Shown piece by piece: positions 9,483-46,353 of a stretch of DNA of 46,353 nucleotides; position 1 is the stretch's first letter; each line of letters begins with the position of its first letter. The translations under genes were made by a program, and so were the position numbers. Below the pieces are notes generated by a model. The model was given only the letters and a program-made list of their open reading frames with translations. It made no database searches and had not been told where the DNA came from. The stretch is from contig MOYE01000004.1 in assembly GCA_001899335.1 (NCBI GenBank), positions 77,862 to 124,214 of the forward strand, in the 5' to 3' direction. The DNA comes from Candidatus Gastranaerophilus phascolarcticola. GTDB lineage: Bacteria; Cyanobacteriota; Vampirovibrionia; Gastranaerophilales; Gastranaerophilaceae.

Positions 9483-10484
9483 ATGCAAAGAGCTTTTACT
9501 ATGGCAGGCGCGGGTCAACGCGCTTTCCTAACTGGCTTACGGGCTTGCGGTCACGCATTTACCATGGCAGAAATACTTCTGTCATTAACAATTATTGGTG
9601 TCGTCGCTGCCATTACTTTACCTAGTTTAACAGGCAACATTAACGAGAGAACTTGGAATACACAACGTAAAGCTCTTTATGCCCGTATGTCACAGGCTAT
9701 TTCACTCATGCCAGCATTAAATGGTTACGGGACTCTTGACGATGCAACTGACACGGCTGCTGAAACTTTTATTACAGCAGGGCTTGCTAAAGTCATGAAA
9801 ATCAACAATATTTGTGATAATGAGCATTTGCAGGATTGCGGCATTCCAACAAAAATTATTCCGACAATAGGCGATGACGGCTCTAATGCAGCATATATTA
9901 ATACGTCAGACATAAAAACTTTTTTTAGTTTAAATAGTTACTTTCACAAAATTCCATTTTTCCCGCAGGATACAAAAGTCGCGGCATTTGAAACACAAAA
10001 CGGCGAAAGTATAATTACATATTATAATCCGCAATGTTCGCACACTACCCAATATTATCAGAATAGTAATAATCATATTTGGTATGTTCCCGAAGTTTGT
10101 GTCAATTTTATCTATGATCTGAATGGCTCCAAAGGTCCAAATACTGTAAATAAGGATATTGGAATAATGACTGTTTTTTACCCGACGGATTCTATCGTTG
10201 CGGCGCCGGTTCTACCTTTAAGGTCTATCTCAAGCGGTAATAACGTTACGCAATACAATGCGGCAAAATTTTGTAGAGATTTCGATTCTGAATTTCGCGC
10301 ACCAAACATTTACGAAGCACAATCAATCGTTACTAACCATAAACTATTAAATCTTAGAAGTGTAATGCTATGGACGAGTGAAATTGAGTCTCCAACGAAG
10401 GGCTGGGTTGTACAGACAAATGAGCCTGTTAGAGGCGCTGTTGACCGTAATGGGGGACGTCGTTTACAATGTGTTAAACGATAA
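9483..10484 (+). CDS. Type IV prepilin-like protein, copy 1 (no G tract)
   Basis: A 333-residue prepilin-like secreted or surface protein. The cleavable leader is about 25 residues, ending in CGHA before FTMAEILLSLTIIGVVAAI; cleavage between Ala25 and Phe26 puts Glu at +5, as needed for prepilin peptidase and pilus assembly. The leader itself contains a second similar site (RAFTMAGAG). After the hydrophobic helix comes the family block PSLTGNINERTWNTQRKALY. The C-terminal part has ICDNEHLQDCG, NFIYDLNGSKGPNTVNKDIG and a final lectin-like region with RAPNIYEAQ, LWTSEI and terminal CVKR, resembling DUF1566. The SD is AAAGGA in the shared AGAAAGGAT leader. Unlike the other copies it has no poly-G tract. 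It abuts lepA tail to tail with no spacer. Confidence 0.85.
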   Translation: MQRAFTMAGAGQRAFLTGLRACGHAFTMAEILLSLTIIGVVAAITLPSLTGNINERTWNTQRKALYARMSQAISLMPALNGYGTLDDATDTAAETFITAGLAKVMKINNICDNEHLQDCGIPTKIIPTIGDDGSNAAYINTSDIKTFFSLNSYFHKIPFFPQDTKVAAFETQNGESIITYYNPQCSHTTQYYQNSNNHIWYVPEVCVNFIYDLNGSKGPNTVNKDIGIMTVFYPTDSIVAAPVLPLRSISSGNNVTQYNAAKFCRDFDSEFRAPNIYEAQSIVTNHKLLNLRSVMLWTSEIESPTKGWVVQTNEPVRGAVDRNGGRRLQCVKR

Positions 10485-16911: not shown

Positions 16912-17494
16912 GTCTTGTGCATTAGGCGCAACCCGTACAAACTTGGTATTTTCAGACGGTAATGCAGAAACAGCAAGAATCGTTCTGATAGGAGAAGCTC
17001 CGGGCGAAACAGAAGATTTGGAAGGCAGACCGTTTGTAGGTCGTGCAGGTCAGCTCTTAAATGAATTCTTAGCAGAAGCAGGGATTTCAAGAGAAGAAGA
17101 TTTATATATTATCAACACAGTAAAATGCAGACCGCCGGAAAACAGAGTTCCGACAGATTTGGAAAAGGCTTGCTGCAGCAAATTTTTAAAAGCACAAATT
17201 GACATCATTAAGCCTCAAGCAATAGTACTTTGCGGAGCAACAGCCTTGAAATCCTTTGTAGAACTTGACAAGAAAACAACGATTTCAAAAGTACGCGGTC
17301 AATGGATGACAGTAAGCGTAGACGGAGTAGACTATAGAGCAATGACAATATTCCACCCGTCATACTTGTTAAGAAACCACTCAATGGAAGAAGGTTCACC
17401 AAGAAGATTGATGCAGCAAGACCTTGCAGAAATCAAAAACCAAATTTTAGGCGACAAAGTTTGGTCAAACAATTCACAATGCGCTTGCGTGTAA
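16859..17494 (+). CDS. Family 4 (Fe-S) uracil-DNA glycosylase
   Basis: A 211-residue type 4 UDG, an iron-sulfur base-excision enzyme that removes uracil from DNA. Two of the cluster cysteines are in KCQSCKSCALG (residues 13-23). The catalytic motif is IGEAPGETEDLEGRPFVGRA near 43-62, with VKCRPPENRVPTDLE carrying a further cysteine, and the leucine-loop motif is FHPSYLLRN near the C-terminus. AAGGAG about 7 bases upstream supports the ATG at 16859 or the adjacent one at 16862, although both lie 50 or more bases inside the symporter gene. The last residues QCACV add two cysteines, an unusual tail. Confidence 0.92.
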   Translation: MMKKECLEIVEKKCQSCKSCALGATRTNLVFSDGNAETARIVLIGEAPGETEDLEGRPFVGRAGQLLNEFLAEAGISREEDLYIINTVKCRPPENRVPTDLEKACCSKFLKAQIDIIKPQAIVLCGATALKSFVELDKKTTISKVRGQWMTVSVDGVDYRAMTIFHPSYLLRNHSMEEGSPRRLMQQDLAEIKNQILGDKVWSNNSQCACV

Positions 17495-17512
17495 ACGAAA
17501 ATAAAAGTAGTA

Positions 17513-17543
17513 AACAGGCGGTTCTTTCAGAACCGCCTGTTTT
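17513..17543 (+). terminator. Rho-independent terminator after the UDG gene
   Basis: A perfect 13-bp stem (17513-17525 with 17529-17541), loop TTC, followed by TTTT overlapping the stem end. Only 4 bases separate it from the -35 box of prepilin copy 2. Confidence 0.9.
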
Positions 17544-17546
17544 GTA

Positions 17547-17575
17547 TTGACAACAATGCTATAATAATTTAAAAT
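17547..17575 (+). promoter_or_regulatory. Promoter of prepilin copy 2
   Basis: TTGACA (17547-17552), 17-base spacer, TAAAAT (17570-17575). The same boxes and spacing occur ahead of copies 4 and 5. The shared AGAAAGGAT ribosome-binding leader follows before the ATG at 17601. Confidence 0.75.
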
Positions 17576-17600
17576 AATTATAAAAGAAAGGATAGGATAT

Positions 17601-17666
17601 ATGAAAAACTTAAACTCTGAAAACCCTTGTAATAAGTCCCTGTTAAGACGGGGGGGGGGGGTATGA
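17601..17666 (+). other. Prepilin copy 2 leader ORF, interrupted at the G tract
   Basis: The expected start (ATG 17601, SD AAAGGA) encodes MKNLNSENPCNKSLLRR then Gly codons and reaches TGA at 17664-17666, a 21-residue dead end, because the G run is 12 long. With 11 (or 14, 8) G the frame continues through GYDYA into FTMAEILL. This is the OFF state of a presumed phase switch. Confidence 0.8.
17650..17661 (+). repeat. Poly-G tract (12 G) in prepilin leader
   Basis: Twelve consecutive G residues, preceded by C and followed by T. It is the only cause of the frame break between the leader and the prepilin body. Confidence 0.9.
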
Positions 17667-17679
17667 TTACGCTTTCACA

Positions 17680-18618
17680 ATGGCAGAGATTTTATTATCT
17701 CTCACAATTATAGGCGTAGTTGCCGCAATAACGTTACCAAGTTTGACGGGTAACATTAATGAGCGCACCTGGAATACGCAAAGAAAAGCACTTTATGCTC
17801 GTATGTCACAGGCTATCTCTCTTATGCCTGCACTAAATGGCTACGGAACACTAGTTGCGGGTAATGATTCAACTTCTGCCCAAGACACAGCAACCGAAAC
17901 ATTTTTAACTGACGGTCTTGCAAAAGTTTTAAAAATTAATAATATTTGTGACAACACTCACCTTGAAGATTGCGGTGTCGTCACATCGTTTACCAATATG
18001 GCTGGCTCGCAAACTTCTATGCCTACCACATTATATGAACTCAGCTCGTTCTTCAGAAGCGCAACGTTCTCCAACAGCTCTTATTCAACTATGGACACCA
18101 AAGCTGCGGCTTTTGAAACTCAAAACGGTGAAAGTATTGTTGCTTTCTACAACCAATCTTGCCCTACTGAATATCTGAATGAGGTATCATTAACACAAGA
18201 CGGATACGCATTTGGTTTCCCTCAATCAAATATGTGTGTAAACTTTATTTATGACCTAAACGGTAATAAAGGACCTAATACTGTGGGGAAAGACATCGGG
18301 ATTATGACTGTATTTAATGCTACTGACTCTAATGTTGTCGCACCAATGCCGTCATCTGCAAATAACGCCGGACAAACAACATGGTACAATGCTGCAAAAA
18401 TGTGCACAAGTGCCGACAGTGAAACACGCATACCAAACATTAATGAGCTTTCTGCAATGTTCATCAACCAGAACATTGTCAACTTAACAGCGTCTGCCCT
18501 CTTTTGGTCTGGCTCAGTCTCCACCTCATCCCATGCATGGGATGTCAGTACGTACTTCGGAGTGCGGGGCTCCTATGCCAAGACTCATACAGGCTACGTA
18601 CGTTGCGTTAAAAGATAA
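17680..18618 (+). CDS. Type IV prepilin-like protein, copy 2 (phase OFF)
   Basis: The open frame starts at the internal ATG of FTMAEILL and gives 312 residues, but translation from here would lack the positively charged leader and the cleavage site, so the real gene is probably 17601-18618 with a one-base G-tract shift. The body has LSLTIIGVVAAITLP, the shared PSLTGNINERTWNTQRK block, NICDNTHLEDCG, and NFIYDLNGNKGPNTVGKDIG. The C-terminal region has ETRIPNINELSAM, LFWSGSVS and YVRCVKR, resembling a DUF1566/lectin-like fold. In the mature form it would be a pseudopilin-anchored surface or secreted protein. Copies 1, 3 and 4 share the N-terminal sequence almost residue for residue, yet the codons differ widely. 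Confidence 0.8.
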   Translation: MAEILLSLTIIGVVAAITLPSLTGNINERTWNTQRKALYARMSQAISLMPALNGYGTLVAGNDSTSAQDTATETFLTDGLAKVLKINNICDNTHLEDCGVVTSFTNMAGSQTSMPTTLYELSSFFRSATFSNSSYSTMDTKAAAFETQNGESIVAFYNQSCPTEYLNEVSLTQDGYAFGFPQSNMCVNFIYDLNGNKGPNTVGKDIGIMTVFNATDSNVVAPMPSSANNAGQTTWYNAAKMCTSADSETRIPNINELSAMFINQNIVNLTASALFWSGSVSTSSHAWDVSTYFGVRGSYAKTHTGYVRCVKR

Positions 18619-18631
18619 TTTATCCTTTCAG

Positions 18632-18661
18632 GGCGCAAGCAGAGCTTGTGCCTTAATTTTT
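18632..18661 (+). terminator. Terminator of prepilin copy 2
   Basis: A 9-bp stem GGCGCAAGC (18632-18640) with GCTTGTGCC (18644-18652), one G-T pair, loop AGA, then TTAATTTTT. It closes the copy 2 module before murF. Confidence 0.8.
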
Positions 18662-18717
18662 CCTACACATTTCTTAAACAAATGCCCTTGCACATGTGTT
18701 AGCGGTATAATTAAGAT

Positions 18718-20031
18718 ATGAAGTTAGAAGAGATTATCAAGGCGTCAGGCGCACAAGTTATAAAAACAACTGAAACTATTTATAATATTGAGGTTTCGAC
18801 TGATACAAGAACCATTAAAAACGGTGATATTTATCTGCCTTTGAAAGGTGCGAATTTTGATGGCGAAAATTTTCTTGATAAAGCTGTCGAAAGCGGTGCC
18901 ATCGGATGTTTTATTACACGCGACAATTATCCGCAAAATGCACAAGTTGTACTTAAAGTAGAGAACACGCTTGAAACTTATCTGAAACTTGCTAATTTCT
19001 ACCGCCGCAAAGTTGCGCCAAAAGTCGTTGCAATAACAGGAAGTTCCGGTAAAACCACTACAAAAGAAATGGTTTTCGCGGTTCTAAAAGAAAAGTTCAA
19101 CACGGTCAAAACTCTTTCTAACCACAACAACGAAATCGGTTTGTGTCAGACAATTTTTTCAATGACGCCAGAAACTCAAGTTTTGATTGTCGAAATGGGA
19201 ATGCGTGGGCTTGGCGAAATAGAACTTCTTTCGCGCTATGCCGAACCTGACATTGCGATTATCACAAATGCCGGAACAGCTCACCTCGGACGCCTGGGTT
19301 CGCTTGACAATATTGCGATTGCAAAATGCGAAATTGCGCAACACCTGAACCCGCAGGGCATATTGATTTCACACGATAACGAGCGTCTGCGTAAATTTAA
19401 CAACTTTGCAGGCGAAAAATTATTTTATTCAATCAACAACGCGCAAGTTTTGGAGCGCAAAGCGGGTTATACAAAATTTATTTACAAAAATAACGAGTAT
19501 GAAATTTATACAGAGGGCGACTACAATGTTGAAAATGCTATTTCAGCGATAGAAGCGGGCTTAGCATTAAAAATGACGCCGGCTGAAATAAACCGCGGGC
19601 TTGCGTCATATAAACCGATTGAAAAACGCTGGGAGGCGGAAAATGTAGCGGGTTTGAACATTATAAACGACAGTTACAATGCGAATCCGGATTCAATGAA
19701 AGCGTCTGTCAGTGCGTTTTTAGGACTTTACCCGCAGCCGGTTGTAGTGCTTGGTGATATGGGCGAACTTGGCGAAAGCGAAGTTGAACTTCACGCGCAA
19801 GTCGGCGCTGAACTTGCCAAAATCGCGTCAAAAGGAACAAAATTCCTTACGGTCGGAAGATTAAGCCGTAATATTGCCGGTGCGCTGAAAGATTTTGATG
19901 TCACAAGCGTTGACTCGAACAAAGATGCTGCAGAAGTTTTGCGACATATGCCAGAAAATTCCAATGTATTTTTGAAAGCATCGCGTTCTATGAAGTTTGA
20001 AGAGATTATCAATTATTTAAAGGAGATATAA
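18718..20031 (+). CDS. murF: UDP-MurNAc-tripeptide D-Ala-D-Ala ligase MurF
   Basis: A 437-residue Mur ligase that adds D-Ala-D-Ala to UDP-MurNAc-tripeptide in the cytoplasm. Seen: N-terminal recognition domain with VSTDTRTIKNGDIYLPLKG; ATP-binding loop ITGSSGKTTTKEMV near residues 102-115; LSNHNNEIGLCQT; VEMGMRGLGEIELLS; and NDSYNANPDSM near 315. TATAAT at 18706-18711 ends 6 bases before the ATG and there is no Shine-Dalgarno, so the mRNA may be leaderless. First gene of a tightly packed wall operon; alr, which makes the D-Ala, is elsewhere in the window. Confidence 0.96.
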   Translation: MKLEEIIKASGAQVIKTTETIYNIEVSTDTRTIKNGDIYLPLKGANFDGENFLDKAVESGAIGCFITRDNYPQNAQVVLKVENTLETYLKLANFYRRKVAPKVVAITGSSGKTTTKEMVFAVLKEKFNTVKTLSNHNNEIGLCQTIFSMTPETQVLIVEMGMRGLGEIELLSRYAEPDIAIITNAGTAHLGRLGSLDNIAIAKCEIAQHLNPQGILISHDNERLRKFNNFAGEKLFYSINNAQVLERKAGYTKFIYKNNEYEIYTEGDYNVENAISAIEAGLALKMTPAEINRGLASYKPIEKRWEAENVAGLNIINDSYNANPDSMKASVSAFLGLYPQPVVVLGDMGELGESEVELHAQVGAELAKIASKGTKFLTVGRLSRNIAGALKDFDVTSVDSNKDAAEVLRHMPENSNVFLKASRSMKFEEIINYLKEI

Positions 20032-27428: not shown

Positions 27429-28376
27429 CTAGTCATATCTATGTACACACATAGCAGCACGCGTAGCAGTCCTTGATACCCAGGAATACACTCGTCCAAG
27501 GGTGGTGTGAACTACATAACCGTTACTGGAATTTGATATTTTACTTGTCCAAAATTCCTCTTGGGTCGTATGCCCGTTAAGCCCTAATAAATAGTAGTTT
27601 ATAGAAATAGACATAAATTCTTCCAAACTTGGCAACCTGGAATCATCATCCAATTCTCTACACTTTTGCCCTGCTTCCTGCTGGGTAACGGCAGAAAACA
27701 TATTTGTATAAACACTTGGAGCAACTACAATTGAGTCACTCGGATAGAAAACAGACATAATTCCCATGTCTTTTCCCATAGTATTAGGACCTTTATTACC
27801 ATTCAAATCATAGACAAAGTTAACACATATTTTTTGTTGCGCAAAATCCGTCAAACCGCCTCGTCCAAGCTCCGGAATACAACTTGGATTATAATATGCC
27901 AGTATACTTTCACCATTAGCGGTTTCAAATGCTGCAACTTTTGAGTTTACAACATATACAGACCTTGAAGTCACACCGTCAGTTTCAGTAAAGTTATATT
28001 GAAATCTGGAATGTAATCCCAGTAAATCTAACGGAACATCTCTTTTACTTGCAAACATATCTGTATATTGGCTTGCAAAGCCACAGTCTTCAATATTTTC
28101 GCTGTCACAGATGTTGTTAATTTTCAGGACTTTTGAAAGCCCGGCTGTGACGAATGTTTCGGCTGCGGTGTCTTGGGTCACACTGTGACTTGCGTCTTCT
28201 GTGAGGGTACCGTATCCATTTAACGCCGGCATAAGGGCAATTGCCTGGCTCATCCTCGCATAAAGCGCTTTTCGCTGCGTGTTCCAGGTTCGCTCATTAA
28301 TGTTGCCCGTCAAACTTGGCAATGTTATCGCGGCTACTACGCCAATAATTGTTAGGGATAACAGGATTTCCGCCAT
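27429..28376 (-). CDS. Type IV prepilin-like protein, copy 3 (phase OFF)
   Basis: 315 residues from the internal ATG of FTMAEILLSL; the true start is probably the ATG at 28480, interrupted by an 11-base G tract. With 12 G the leader would run 33 residues to NRA before FTMAEIL. The body has the shared PSLTGNINERTWNTQRK block, ICDSENIEDCG, NFVYDLNGNKGPNTMGKDMG, and a C-terminal lectin-like region with SRLPSLEEFMSI, EEFWTSKIS and final MCVHRYD. The extreme C-terminus differs from copies 1, 2 and 4, which end in CVKR. The role is a surface or secreted pseudopilin-like adhesin, inferred. Confidence 0.8.
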   Translation of the reverse strand: MAEILLSLTIIGVVAAITLPSLTGNINERTWNTQRKALYARMSQAIALMPALNGYGTLTEDASHSVTQDTAAETFVTAGLSKVLKINNICDSENIEDCGFASQYTDMFASKRDVPLDLLGLHSRFQYNFTETDGVTSRSVYVVNSKVAAFETANGESILAYYNPSCIPELGRGGLTDFAQQKICVNFVYDLNGNKGPNTMGKDMGIMSVFYPSDSIVVAPSVYTNMFSAVTQQEAGQKCRELDDDSRLPSLEEFMSISINYYLLGLNGHTTQEEFWTSKISNSSNGYVVHTTLGRVYSWVSRTATRAAMCVHRYD

Positions 28377-28407
28377 AGTGAACGCCCGGTTCGTGGTCCA
28401 GGCGCCC

Positions 28408-28439
28408 GGCTCTAAGTTAGAGGTCCGGCTCAGCCGGCT
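28408..28439. repeat. GC-rich palindromic insert in copy 3 leader
   Basis: Two small perfect inverted repeats: CTCTAA-G-TTAGAG (28410-28422) and CCGGCT-C-AGCCGG (28425-28437), far richer in GC than the surroundings. They lie between the G tract and the cleavage-site codons and are absent from the other copies. Confidence 0.55.
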
Positions 28440-28450
28440 CCCCCCCCCCC
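28440..28450 (-). repeat. Poly-G tract (11 G, minus strand) in copy 3 leader
   Basis: Eleven C on the plus strand, read as G in the gene. From the ATG at 28480 the frame gives MKRRNVLTCT, glycines, then AG and TGA, 16 residues in all. One added G (12) or two lost (9) restores the prepilin frame. Confidence 0.9.
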
Positions 28451-28505
28451 TGTGCAGGTTAATACGTTTCTTCGTTTCATATTTCCATCCTTTCTTTCTT
28501 TAATT

Positions 28506-41348: not shown

Positions 41349-42305
41349 ATGAAAAATTTAAAAGCTGAAAACCCTTGTAATAAGCCCCTGTTCAGATGGG
41401 GGGGGGGGTATGCCTTCACTATGGCGGAGATACTTTTATCTCTTACAATTATCGGTGTCGTTGCTGCGATTACTTTGCCTAGTTTAACAGGCAACATTAA
41501 CGAGAGAACCTGGAATACTCAAAGAAAAGCGTTATATGCGCGCTTTAGTCAAGCAATAGCACTAATGCCGGCGCTTAACGGTTACGGAACGCTTACAGAA
41601 GATGAAAGCGGTAGTGTTACTGAAGACACTGCGGCTGAAACTTTCGTCACAGCCGGACTTTCAAAAGTTCTAAAGATTAACAACATCTGTGATGCAAATA
41701 ATATGGATGATTGTGGTCTCCCAACACAATATATACGTCAAGACAATGCGGAAAAAATAGACTGGCCGACAACAATGGATTCATTAGTTGAGCTTAGCGG
41801 TTGTGGCTTTGGTAGTATCCAAAATACAAAGGCTGCGGCTTTTGAAACAGCTAACGGAGAAGCTATTGCACTATACTACAATCCAACCTGTATAAGCGAC
41901 CTGGTTCAACTTAGCGGCACCAACTGGGTACAAACGCAAAGACGTGTATGCGCTAATCTTATTTACGATTTAAATGGGAATAAGGGACCTAATACCATTG
42001 GCAAAGACATCGGGGTTATAACAATTTTGGACCCTATAGACCCACAGGTAGTTGCCCCAGTGTTTGCAACAAGGGATTCACAAATAAGTAGTGCTTCAGT
42101 TGGCGCAACATGTACAGCTTTCGACACAGAGTATCGGGCTCCAAATTTTAATGAACTTATTTCTTTATATTTTAACAAACACTTATTTGGTTTTGCAGAA
42201 AATAGTTACTACTACCAAGCGGGCGATGGTTGGTATATGGCATTTAATACCGGTTCCGCACTCAAAGGAATGGATGGCTCTAGAACCCGTTGCGTTAAAC
42301 GATAA
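41349..42305 (+). CDS. Type IV prepilin-like protein, copy 4 (phase ON)
   Basis: A complete 318-residue member with the frame open through the G tract. Leader: MKNLKAENPCNKPLFRW, three Gly, then YA; cleavage A|F would leave FTMAEILLSLTIIGVVAAI with Glu at +5. The shared block PSLTGNINERTWNTQRKALY and NICDANNMDDCG, NLIYDLNGNKGPNTIGKDIG follow. The C-terminal part has EYRAPNFNELISLYF and ends RTRCVKR, a lectin-like DUF1566 pattern. The mature protein is predicted to be exported and processed by prepilin peptidase; a surface adhesin or secreted pseudopilin role is inferred. Confidence 0.87.
   Translation: MKNLKAENPCNKPLFRWGGGYAFTMAEILLSLTIIGVVAAITLPSLTGNINERTWNTQRKALYARFSQAIALMPALNGYGTLTEDESGSVTEDTAAETFVTAGLSKVLKINNICDANNMDDCGLPTQYIRQDNAEKIDWPTTMDSLVELSGCGFGSIQNTKAAAFETANGEAIALYYNPTCISDLVQLSGTNWVQTQRRVCANLIYDLNGNKGPNTIGKDIGVITILDPIDPQVVAPVFATRDSQISSASVGATCTAFDTEYRAPNFNELISLYFNKHLFGFAENSYYYQAGDGWYMAFNTGSALKGMDGSRTRCVKR
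41398..41408 (+). repeat. Poly-G tract (11 G), copy 4, in frame
   Basis: Eleven G between an AGAT and TAT context. The codons are TGG then three GGG, giving Trp-Gly-Gly-Gly, in frame with the prepilin body. Confidence 0.9.
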
Positions 42306-46297: not shown

Positions 46298-46353
46298 ATG
46301 AGAAATTTAAAGTCTGAAAACCCTTGTAATAAGCCCCTGATGAGACGGGGGGG
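46298..46353 (+). CDS. Prepilin copy 5, 5' end only (cut by window edge)
   Basis: Only the leader is present: ATG at 46298 after AGAAAGGAT, then RNLKSENPCNKPLMRR, the same leader as copies 2 and 4, ending inside a G run. The prepilin body is outside the window, so its state cannot be told. Same promoter as copy 4. Confidence 0.75.
   Translation, partial: MRNLKSENPCNKPLMRRG
46347..46353 (+). repeat. Poly-G tract of copy 5, truncated
   Basis: At least 7 G at the very end of the window; the true length is unknown. Coincidence of sequence end and homopolymer may mark an assembly break. Confidence 0.7.

What the first reader, a model, noticed from the sequence alone, without database searches (positions are those of the whole stretch)
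17601..18618. Prepilin copy 2 carries a 12-G tract and is switched OFF by one base
The annotated start, promoter and ribosome-binding site lead into a 21-residue dead end, and a single-base deletion (11 G) would rejoin leader and prepilin body. Long homopolymeric G tracts at gene 5' ends are classic slipped-strand contingency loci in Neisseria, Campylobacter and Helicobacter. This looks like translational phase variation of a pilin-like surface protein in a gut bacterium of an unusual lineage. I am not aware of a description of this system.
Basis: partly seen in the sequence, partly recalled or inferred. Interest (0 to 1): 0.93.

Follow-up and report, generated by a model that had tools for sequence, protein, structure and literature searches.

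The report
Switchable lectin-pilin gene repertoire
A gut bacterium related to cyanobacteria carries nearly ninety scattered genes for predicted pilus-like proteins with a long run of Gs near the start whose length sets whether the rest is in frame, so cells likely switch these predicted sugar-binding surface proteins on and off at random; the copy examined here is out of frame.

Summary
Window 17650-17661 is 12 G; the start at 17601 gives a 21-residue dead end, and an intact prepilin-like body (17674-18618) lies in another frame. It is one of 106 paralogues kept from a search of a 1.8 Mb Gastranaerophilales genome; 87 have the G run, or an assembly gap at its place, in the leader. In 85 gap-free copies from six species 26 are in frame, 50 at +1, 9 at +2. 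Between run and body the body frame has 0 stops against 163 and 142 in the others. Another window copy (27429-28376, OFF here) exists in frame in a public assembly. Bodies end in a C-type-lectin-like domain; two run-bearing copies also carry a diversity-generating retroelement's adenine-specific signature there. Best reading: a very large poly-G contingency repertoire of predicted lectin-tipped prepilins. The mechanism is of a known kind (Opa, poly-G loci); its scale, target, lineage and tie to a retroelement were not found in the papers searched. Not shown: switching in reads, expression, an ON allele of this copy.

The parts
17547..17575 (+). promoter-like site TTGACA-17-TAAAAT
   Evidence: 11 of 12 consensus bases; 21 of 22 OFF and 9 of 12 ON copies of this genome score at least 10 of 12 within 120 nt of the start, against 36 of 680 shuffles
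17588..17592 (+). AAGGA, likely ribosome-binding site
   Evidence: sequence
17601..17666 (+). leader reading frame as assembled: 21 residues and TGA
17639..17647 (-). CTTAACAGG, motif found beside many of the G runs; role unknown
17650..17661 (+). 12-G run
17674..18618 (+). prepilin-like body (FTMAEILLSLTIIGVVAA...), 314 codons and stop, out of frame with the leader
18304..18615 (+). C-type-lectin-like (Lcl C-terminal-like) domain
18630..18654 (+). terminator-like hairpin
41349..42305 (+). paralogue, G11 at 41398-41408, in frame (318 residues)
27429..28480 (-). paralogue, G11 at 28440-28450, out of frame here (16-residue product); in frame in P0240
46298..46353 (+). leader of a further paralogue, cut by the window end inside its G run
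9483..10484 (+). paralogue without a G run (leader MQRAFTMAGAGQRAFLTGLRACGHA)

Best explanation
The 12-G run lies inside the leader-coding part of a predicted type IV prepilin gene and leaves its start codon out of frame with an intact body, so the gene is likely an ON/OFF contingency locus that would switch by slipped-strand changes in run length. Shown by sequence: 87 of 106 paralogues kept from this genome have the run, or an assembly gap at its place, in the leader; gap-free copies with 10-14 G stand in all three frames; OFF copies keep promoter-like site, SD and open body; the segment after the run is open only in the body frame. Inferred: the prepilin peptidase removes the leader, so length changes there leave the mature protein unchanged; copies switch independently; cells therefore show changing subsets of lectin-tipped pilins. 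Also shown by sequence: a retroelement (Avd-like protein, template repeat, reverse transcriptase) has adenine-specific variable repeats in the lectin-coding end of two run-bearing copies, so display and binding-site sequence are likely varied by two separate mechanisms.
For: Frames 26/50/9 in 85 gap-free copies of six species. Between run and body, 7,515 nt: 0 stops in the body frame, 163 and 142 in the others; of 40 distinct stretches of at least 57 nt, 0, 40 and 38 hold a stop. Bodies: of 156 body starts in the fetched run and prepilin loci, 2 are broken by a stop before 260 residues, both in sister species, none in this genome. Promoter-like sites and SDs kept in OFF copies. Both states of a locus in public proteins: P0240 (350 residues, leader MKRRNVLTCTGGGGSRLSRTSNLEPGAWTTNRA) against the OFF window copy 27429-28376, 2 of 315 residues different; P0011 (starts at the internal ATG, 30 contigs) and P0012 (with leader, 2 contigs) share one 312-residue body. 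Natural control: sister species G005 has no run of 10 G and short ordinary leaders; 13 run-less copies with short or other leaders stand in this genome. Prepilin peptidase domain in 6 of 7 genus genomes. Lectin-like fold. Retroelement.
Against: No reads, no expression data. No ON allele of the copy at 17601 was seen. 35 of 71 run-bearing copies found in this genome have N gaps near the run and were dropped, so lengths are uncertain there. Frames are not evenly spread: +1 prevails over +2 (50 to 9), and single genomes are lopsided (G001 1/12/0, G002 2/12/0, G003 9/0/4), which could be a length preference (55 of 85 leaders need a multiple of three G) or a bias of assembly. MutS1, which would damp slippage, is present in 7 of 7 genus genomes. 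The start was chosen partly by its SD, so the SD count is not independent. The TIGR02532 prepilin model scores 15.3 against a cut-off of 16.3. An internal-ATG start in a protein set may also come from a contig edge or a gene caller's choice.
Confidence: 0.82

Rival explanations
1. Run lengths are sequencing or assembly errors and the genes are in fact all in frame.
For: The assembly has N gaps inside many runs; frames are lopsided in single genomes; homopolymers are error-prone.
Against: Runs of 9-14 G at the same place in scores of copies and in six species; the same window copy is OFF here and ON in another assembly; run-less copies in the same genome assembled normally. Even if single lengths are wrong, a run of about 12 G in the frame-critical place remains.
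Confidence: 0.08
2. The run is a programmed frameshift or transcriptional slippage site, so 'OFF' copies are made at a set fraction without any change in DNA.
For: +1 copies prevail (50 of 85), and the bodies stay open in them.
Against: All three frames occur among close paralogues, 26 of 85 being plainly in frame; a fixed frameshift signal would keep one length class. It is not excluded as an addition.
Confidence: 0.12
3. OFF copies are a silent archive (pilS-like) whose bodies are moved by recombination into a few expressed copies.
For: Identical bodies under different leaders (P0041/P0042, P0289/P0294, P0298/P0300); leader and post-run similarity is only weakly tied to body similarity (Mantel r 0.03-0.14, the two leader-body values nominally significant).
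Against: OFF copies have their own promoter-like sites, SDs and leaders, and a post-run segment kept open in the body frame; no special expression locus was found. Recombination and switching can coexist.
Confidence: 0.15
4. The OFF copies are decaying pseudogenes.
For: Most gap-free copies are out of frame (59 of 85); two sister-species bodies do hold a stop (L258, L275).
Against: Only 2 of 156 body starts are broken and 0 stops lie between run and body in the body frame; decay would scatter stops.
Confidence: 0.03

Closest known systems
Neisseria gonorrhoeae opa genes (PMC3745409, passages)
   Same: Dispersed paralogues of a surface protein, each with a repeat in the leader-coding part whose length sets the frame, each with its own promoter
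   Different: About 11 genes with CTCTT repeats and an outer-membrane barrel (barrel recalled); here 87 copies with G runs and a predicted lectin-tipped prepilin
Poly-G contingency loci of Neisseria and Campylobacter (PMC5953494 and PMC11868660, passages)
   Same: G runs in coding sequence switching frame
   Different: 15.4-19.4 poly-G tracts a genome in the named Neisseria species and 23 SSR phase-variable genes in C. jejuni NCTC11168, spread over gene families; here 105 runs of 9 or more G, 73 of 97 examined units in one gene family
Gonococcal pilE/pilS antigenic variation (PMC5953494, passage; otherwise recalled)
   Same: Many pilin variants in one genome with conserved N-terminus and variable C-terminus
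   Different: There silent partial copies feed one expressed gene; here each copy has its own promoter-like site and start
Diversity-generating retroelements acting on Bacteroides tip pilins (PMC12632263, passage)
   Same: A retroelement varies the binding domain of a pilus protein in gut bacteria
   Different: Those are type V pili; here a prepilin-like protein whose leader also carries a G-run switch
Legionella Lcl C-terminal domain (PDB 8q4e)
   Same: Fold of the C-terminal domain
   Different: Lcl is a collagen-like adhesin, not a prepilin

Membership tests
Translational simple-repeat contingency locus | Repeat long enough to slip, in the 5' coding part | tested here: met
   G12 in the leader; 105 runs of 9 or more G in the genome
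Translational simple-repeat contingency locus | Intact gene reachable in one of the three frames | tested here: met
Translational simple-repeat contingency locus | Length differs between strains of a species | tested here: inconclusive
   Both states seen as proteins for two other loci (P0240; P0011/P0012); not seen for this copy; DNA lengths and species of those assemblies not inspected
Translational simple-repeat contingency locus | Reversible switching within a clone | not testable with these tools
   needs reads or culture
Type IV prepilin | Class III signal: short leader, cleavage before F, E at mature position 5, long hydrophobic helix (recalled) | tested here: met
   A/FTMAEILLSLTIIGVVAAITLP; N-terminal helix 2-48 in the model, at low confidence
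Type IV prepilin | Passes the prepilin N-terminal model TIGR02532 | tested here: inconclusive
   Copy 41349 scores 15.3 against 16.3
Type IV prepilin | Prepilin peptidase encoded | tested here: met
   PF06750 in G000 and in 6 of 7 genus genomes
Type IV prepilin | Assembles into a pilus | not testable with these tools
   other pilus assembly genes were not searched
Lcl_C / C-type-lectin-like domain | Sequence model and fold | tested here: inconclusive
Diversity-generating retroelement (L382, outside the window) | Reverse transcriptase, accessory Avd, template and variable repeats differing at template adenines | tested here: met
   RVT_1 64.7 bits and bAvd 47.5 bits, over cut-offs; L019 9 of 9 and L027 3 of 3 differences at A; G005 19 of 20. 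NCBIfam Avd model 47.1 against cut-off 80
Diversity-generating retroelement (L382, outside the window) | Active mutagenesis | not testable with these tools
   needs strain or time series
pilE/pilS silent-cassette system | Donor copies lack promoter and start (recalled) | tested here: not met
   OFF copies have promoter-like sites, SDs and starts

The most novel reading that the evidence does not exclude
A two-layer repertoire machine in a gut relative of cyanobacteria: a retroelement rewrites the lectin tip of prepilins, duplication stores about a hundred variants round the genome, and a poly-G switch in each discarded leader draws a random subset for display. Display and recognition are varied independently in the same genes.
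Probability: 0.42. Interest if true: 0.94.

Novelty: new variant of a known kind. Interest (0 to 1): 0.86.

Why it matters
With 87 copies that could switch one by one, a single strain could present a vast number of surface combinations, far beyond the roughly 11-copy Opa set. It sits in an uncultured animal-gut lineage for which my searches found no account of phase variation. It joins slipped-strand switching and retroelement hypermutation in single genes. It predicts something testable on existing metagenomes: lengths at these runs should vary within hosts. It also warns that gene callers may cut OFF copies at the internal ATG: 60 of 318 relatives with the motif, out of 324 listed, start at MAE.

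Tried and rejected
Mobile-element origin of the run: in an AAA-ATPase gene, sister G004 has G13 in frame where G002 reads GGCGGTG, so there the run probably grew in place; not pursued. Loss of mismatch repair as the driver: MutS1 present in 7 of 7; MutL not searched. Comparing the copy at 17601 with an orthologue: no success. After the upstream gene, L118 has an opposite-strand copy before the same downstream gene; L117, L119 and L120 have an opposite-strand copy; L116 has another gene. Recent retroelement rewriting of the window copies: the copy at 17601 aligns with the template over only 19 nt. PDB sequence match for the Avd-like protein: none. Orthologues of the run-bearing gene L114: fetched, but my anchor pattern found it in only 1 of 6 loci, so no comparison. 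Papers: searches gave 0, 1, 1 and 1 papers, none on this; others gave other systems; two listed 6 papers each with pili mentioned, of which I saw passages of PMC5877343 only (pilus genes listed; no phase variation). PMC5084427: abstract and outline only.

Full report
WHAT IS THERE. ATG 17601 follows a TTGACA-17-TAAAAT promoter-like site (17547-17575) and an AAGGA element. The leader runs 49 nt to a G12 run (17650-17661) and stops at TGA 17664-17666 after 21 residues. The body reads openly from 17674 to 18618, and a terminator-like hairpin follows. The window holds four more members: 41349 (G11, in frame), 27429-28480 on the minus strand (G11, out of frame), one starting at 46298 and cut by the window end, and 9483 without a run.

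HOW MANY. The window's genome (G000, 1.82 Mb, 14 contigs) has 105 runs of at least 9 G counted by their first base. 100 of the 105 places were listed and I fetched all 100. Runs split by a gap were merged, giving 97 units: 73 lead into a prepilin body (3 of these broken by N) and 24 lie elsewhere. A protein search with the in-frame copy 41349 found 115 matches; I set aside 9 short or weak ones and kept 106. Of these, 87 have the run or an assembly gap at its place: 70 by coordinate, 2 whose match includes the leader, 15 read. 13 have leaders without a run. 6 are unresolved: 3 lack the start motif and 3 were not looked at.

RELATIVES. Five sister species have 102-129 matches and 87-127 runs of at least 10 G; the sixth, G005, has 18 matches (6 of them strong), no such run, and mostly short leaders such as MKKFAFTMAE. 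In a sample of 146 genomes of the order (G000 among them) such runs reach 176 in this family and at most 3 in the other families; that call counts runs, not prepilins. Run-bearing prepilin leaders also occur in more distant relatives, for example L122, L126, L127, L132, L136 and L139.

FRAMES. I used gap-free copies with an assignable start. In this genome 74 bodies were found in the fetched loci, 71 with a run; 35 were dropped for N and 2 for lack of a start, leaving 34: 12 in frame, 19 at +1, 3 at +2. For five sister species I fetched 80 of their listed places, the best-scoring ones rather than a random draw (20, 20, 17, 20 and 3); 79 gave bodies, 27 of these had no run in reach (many at contig ends), 1 had no start, leaving 51. 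All together: 26 in frame, 50 at +1, 9 at +2. That script kept only bodies of at least 150 residues, so I repeated it without that filter: of 156 body starts, 2 are broken by a stop before 260 residues (L258 of G001, L275 of G002) and none in this genome. Between run and body, over 7,515 nt in 85 copies (75 distinct stretches), the body frame has 0 stops and the other two 163 and 142. So the segment is kept readable together with the body, which needs the right run length. In this genome 21 of 22 OFF and 9 of 12 ON copies score at least 10 of 12 for a promoter, against 36 of 680 shuffles; all 34 have an SD, but the start was chosen partly by it. Frames are uneven between genomes (G001 1/12/0, G002 2/12/0, G003 9/0/4, G004 2/5/2, G006 0/2/0). 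55 of 85 leaders need a multiple of three G, and common lengths are 12 and 13. I take this as a length preference; assembly bias is not excluded.

VARIATION ELSEWHERE. P0240, from a public assembly, has 350 residues, begins MKRRNVLTCTGGGGSRLSRTSNLEPGAWTTNRAFTMAE, and differs from the OFF window copy 27429-28376 at 2 of 315 residues, so that locus exists in frame. P0121 is an in-frame relative of the in-frame copy 41349 (5 of 318 different). P0011 (starts at the internal ATG, 30 contigs) and P0012 (with leader, 2 contigs) share one body. For the copy at 17601 only the OFF-type cluster P0001 (8 member sequences, 27 contigs) was seen; members inside a cluster could not be inspected. Identical bodies also occur under different leaders (P0041/P0042, P0289/P0294), and leader or post-run similarity is only weakly tied to body similarity in this genome (r 0.03-0.14; leader against the two body parts p 0.028 and 0.0075). 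Leaders are probably exchanged by recombination too.

THE RETROELEMENT. Retroelements often act on C-type lectin folds (recalled), so I searched for reverse transcriptases: 7 of 7 genus genomes have one. In this genome an Avd-like ORF, a 132-nt template repeat and the reverse transcriptase lie in a row in L382. Of 78 distinct prepilin 3' ends, L019 matches the whole template with 9 differences, all at template adenines (30 of 132 positions; about 2e-6 under a uniform model). L027, just upstream of the cassette, matches over 25 readable nt with 3 of 3 at adenines; the rest of its repeat is an assembly gap. Both genes have G runs: L027 is in frame at its run, L019 is gapped there. The other 76 ends, the copy at 17601 included, show no such full match. 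In G005 the prepilin beside its cassette has 19 of 20 differences at template adenines and no G run. So in this genus the retroelement occurs with and without the switch, and both act, by sequence, on at least two genes here.

KNOWN OR NOT. Leader-repeat switching of dispersed surface-protein genes is known from Opa (about 11 genes; PMC3745409, passages). Neisseria averages 15.4, 18.2 and 19.4 poly-G tracts a genome in three species (PMC5953494, passages). C. jejuni NCTC11168 is given 23 SSR phase-variable genes (PMC11868660, passages). Retroelement-varied tip pilins are mentioned for Bacteroides (PMC12632263, passages). A survey of retroelement targets has no occurrence of pilin, Melainabacteria or Gastranaerophilales in its main text (PMC8144416, term search). 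Gastranaerophilales or Melainabacteria with phase variation gave 0 papers and 1 flagellin paper. The library lacks most subscription journals and preprints, so absence there is weak evidence.

Noticed in passing
17639-17647, 28425-28433, 41387-41395, 46336-46344 (minus strand), and run loci genome-wide: A short motif CTNANCMG(G) sits beside many G runs: 53 of 73 prepilin units and 9 of 24 others, against 90 of 19,572 background spots (motif defined after seeing the data). It is read in all three frames, so it seems to act as DNA or RNA; role unknown.
   Followed up: partly
L009, L038, L049, L055, L058, L094, L105, L114: G runs also interrupt other genes, among them an AAA ATPase (L058), a PRTase-CE-like protein (L055) and several ORFs without a Pfam match.
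   Followed up: partly
L260-L299; proteins P0123, P0150, P0273: Many leaders of sister species carry long in-frame inserts that look like dispersed palindromic repeats (CHPELDSGS...RFRNKFGMT), up to about 120 residues, always open in the body frame.
   Followed up: no
9483-9570: The run-less copy has AFTMA twice around an AGAGQRAFLTGLRACGH insert, as if a module had been inserted into the cleavage-site region; similar in L117, L332 and P0004.
   Followed up: no
17494-18718: The interval between the flanking genes (UDG-like and murF-like by my reading, no family search) holds a copy on the opposite strand in L118, so copies come, go or turn between species.
   Followed up: partly
L116, L151, L181 (record titles): Records titled Fusobacterium, Clostridiaceae and Brachyspira carry close relatives of the upstream gene (96, 80 and 76% identity) and look like mislabelled Gastranaerophilales MAGs.
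   Followed up: no
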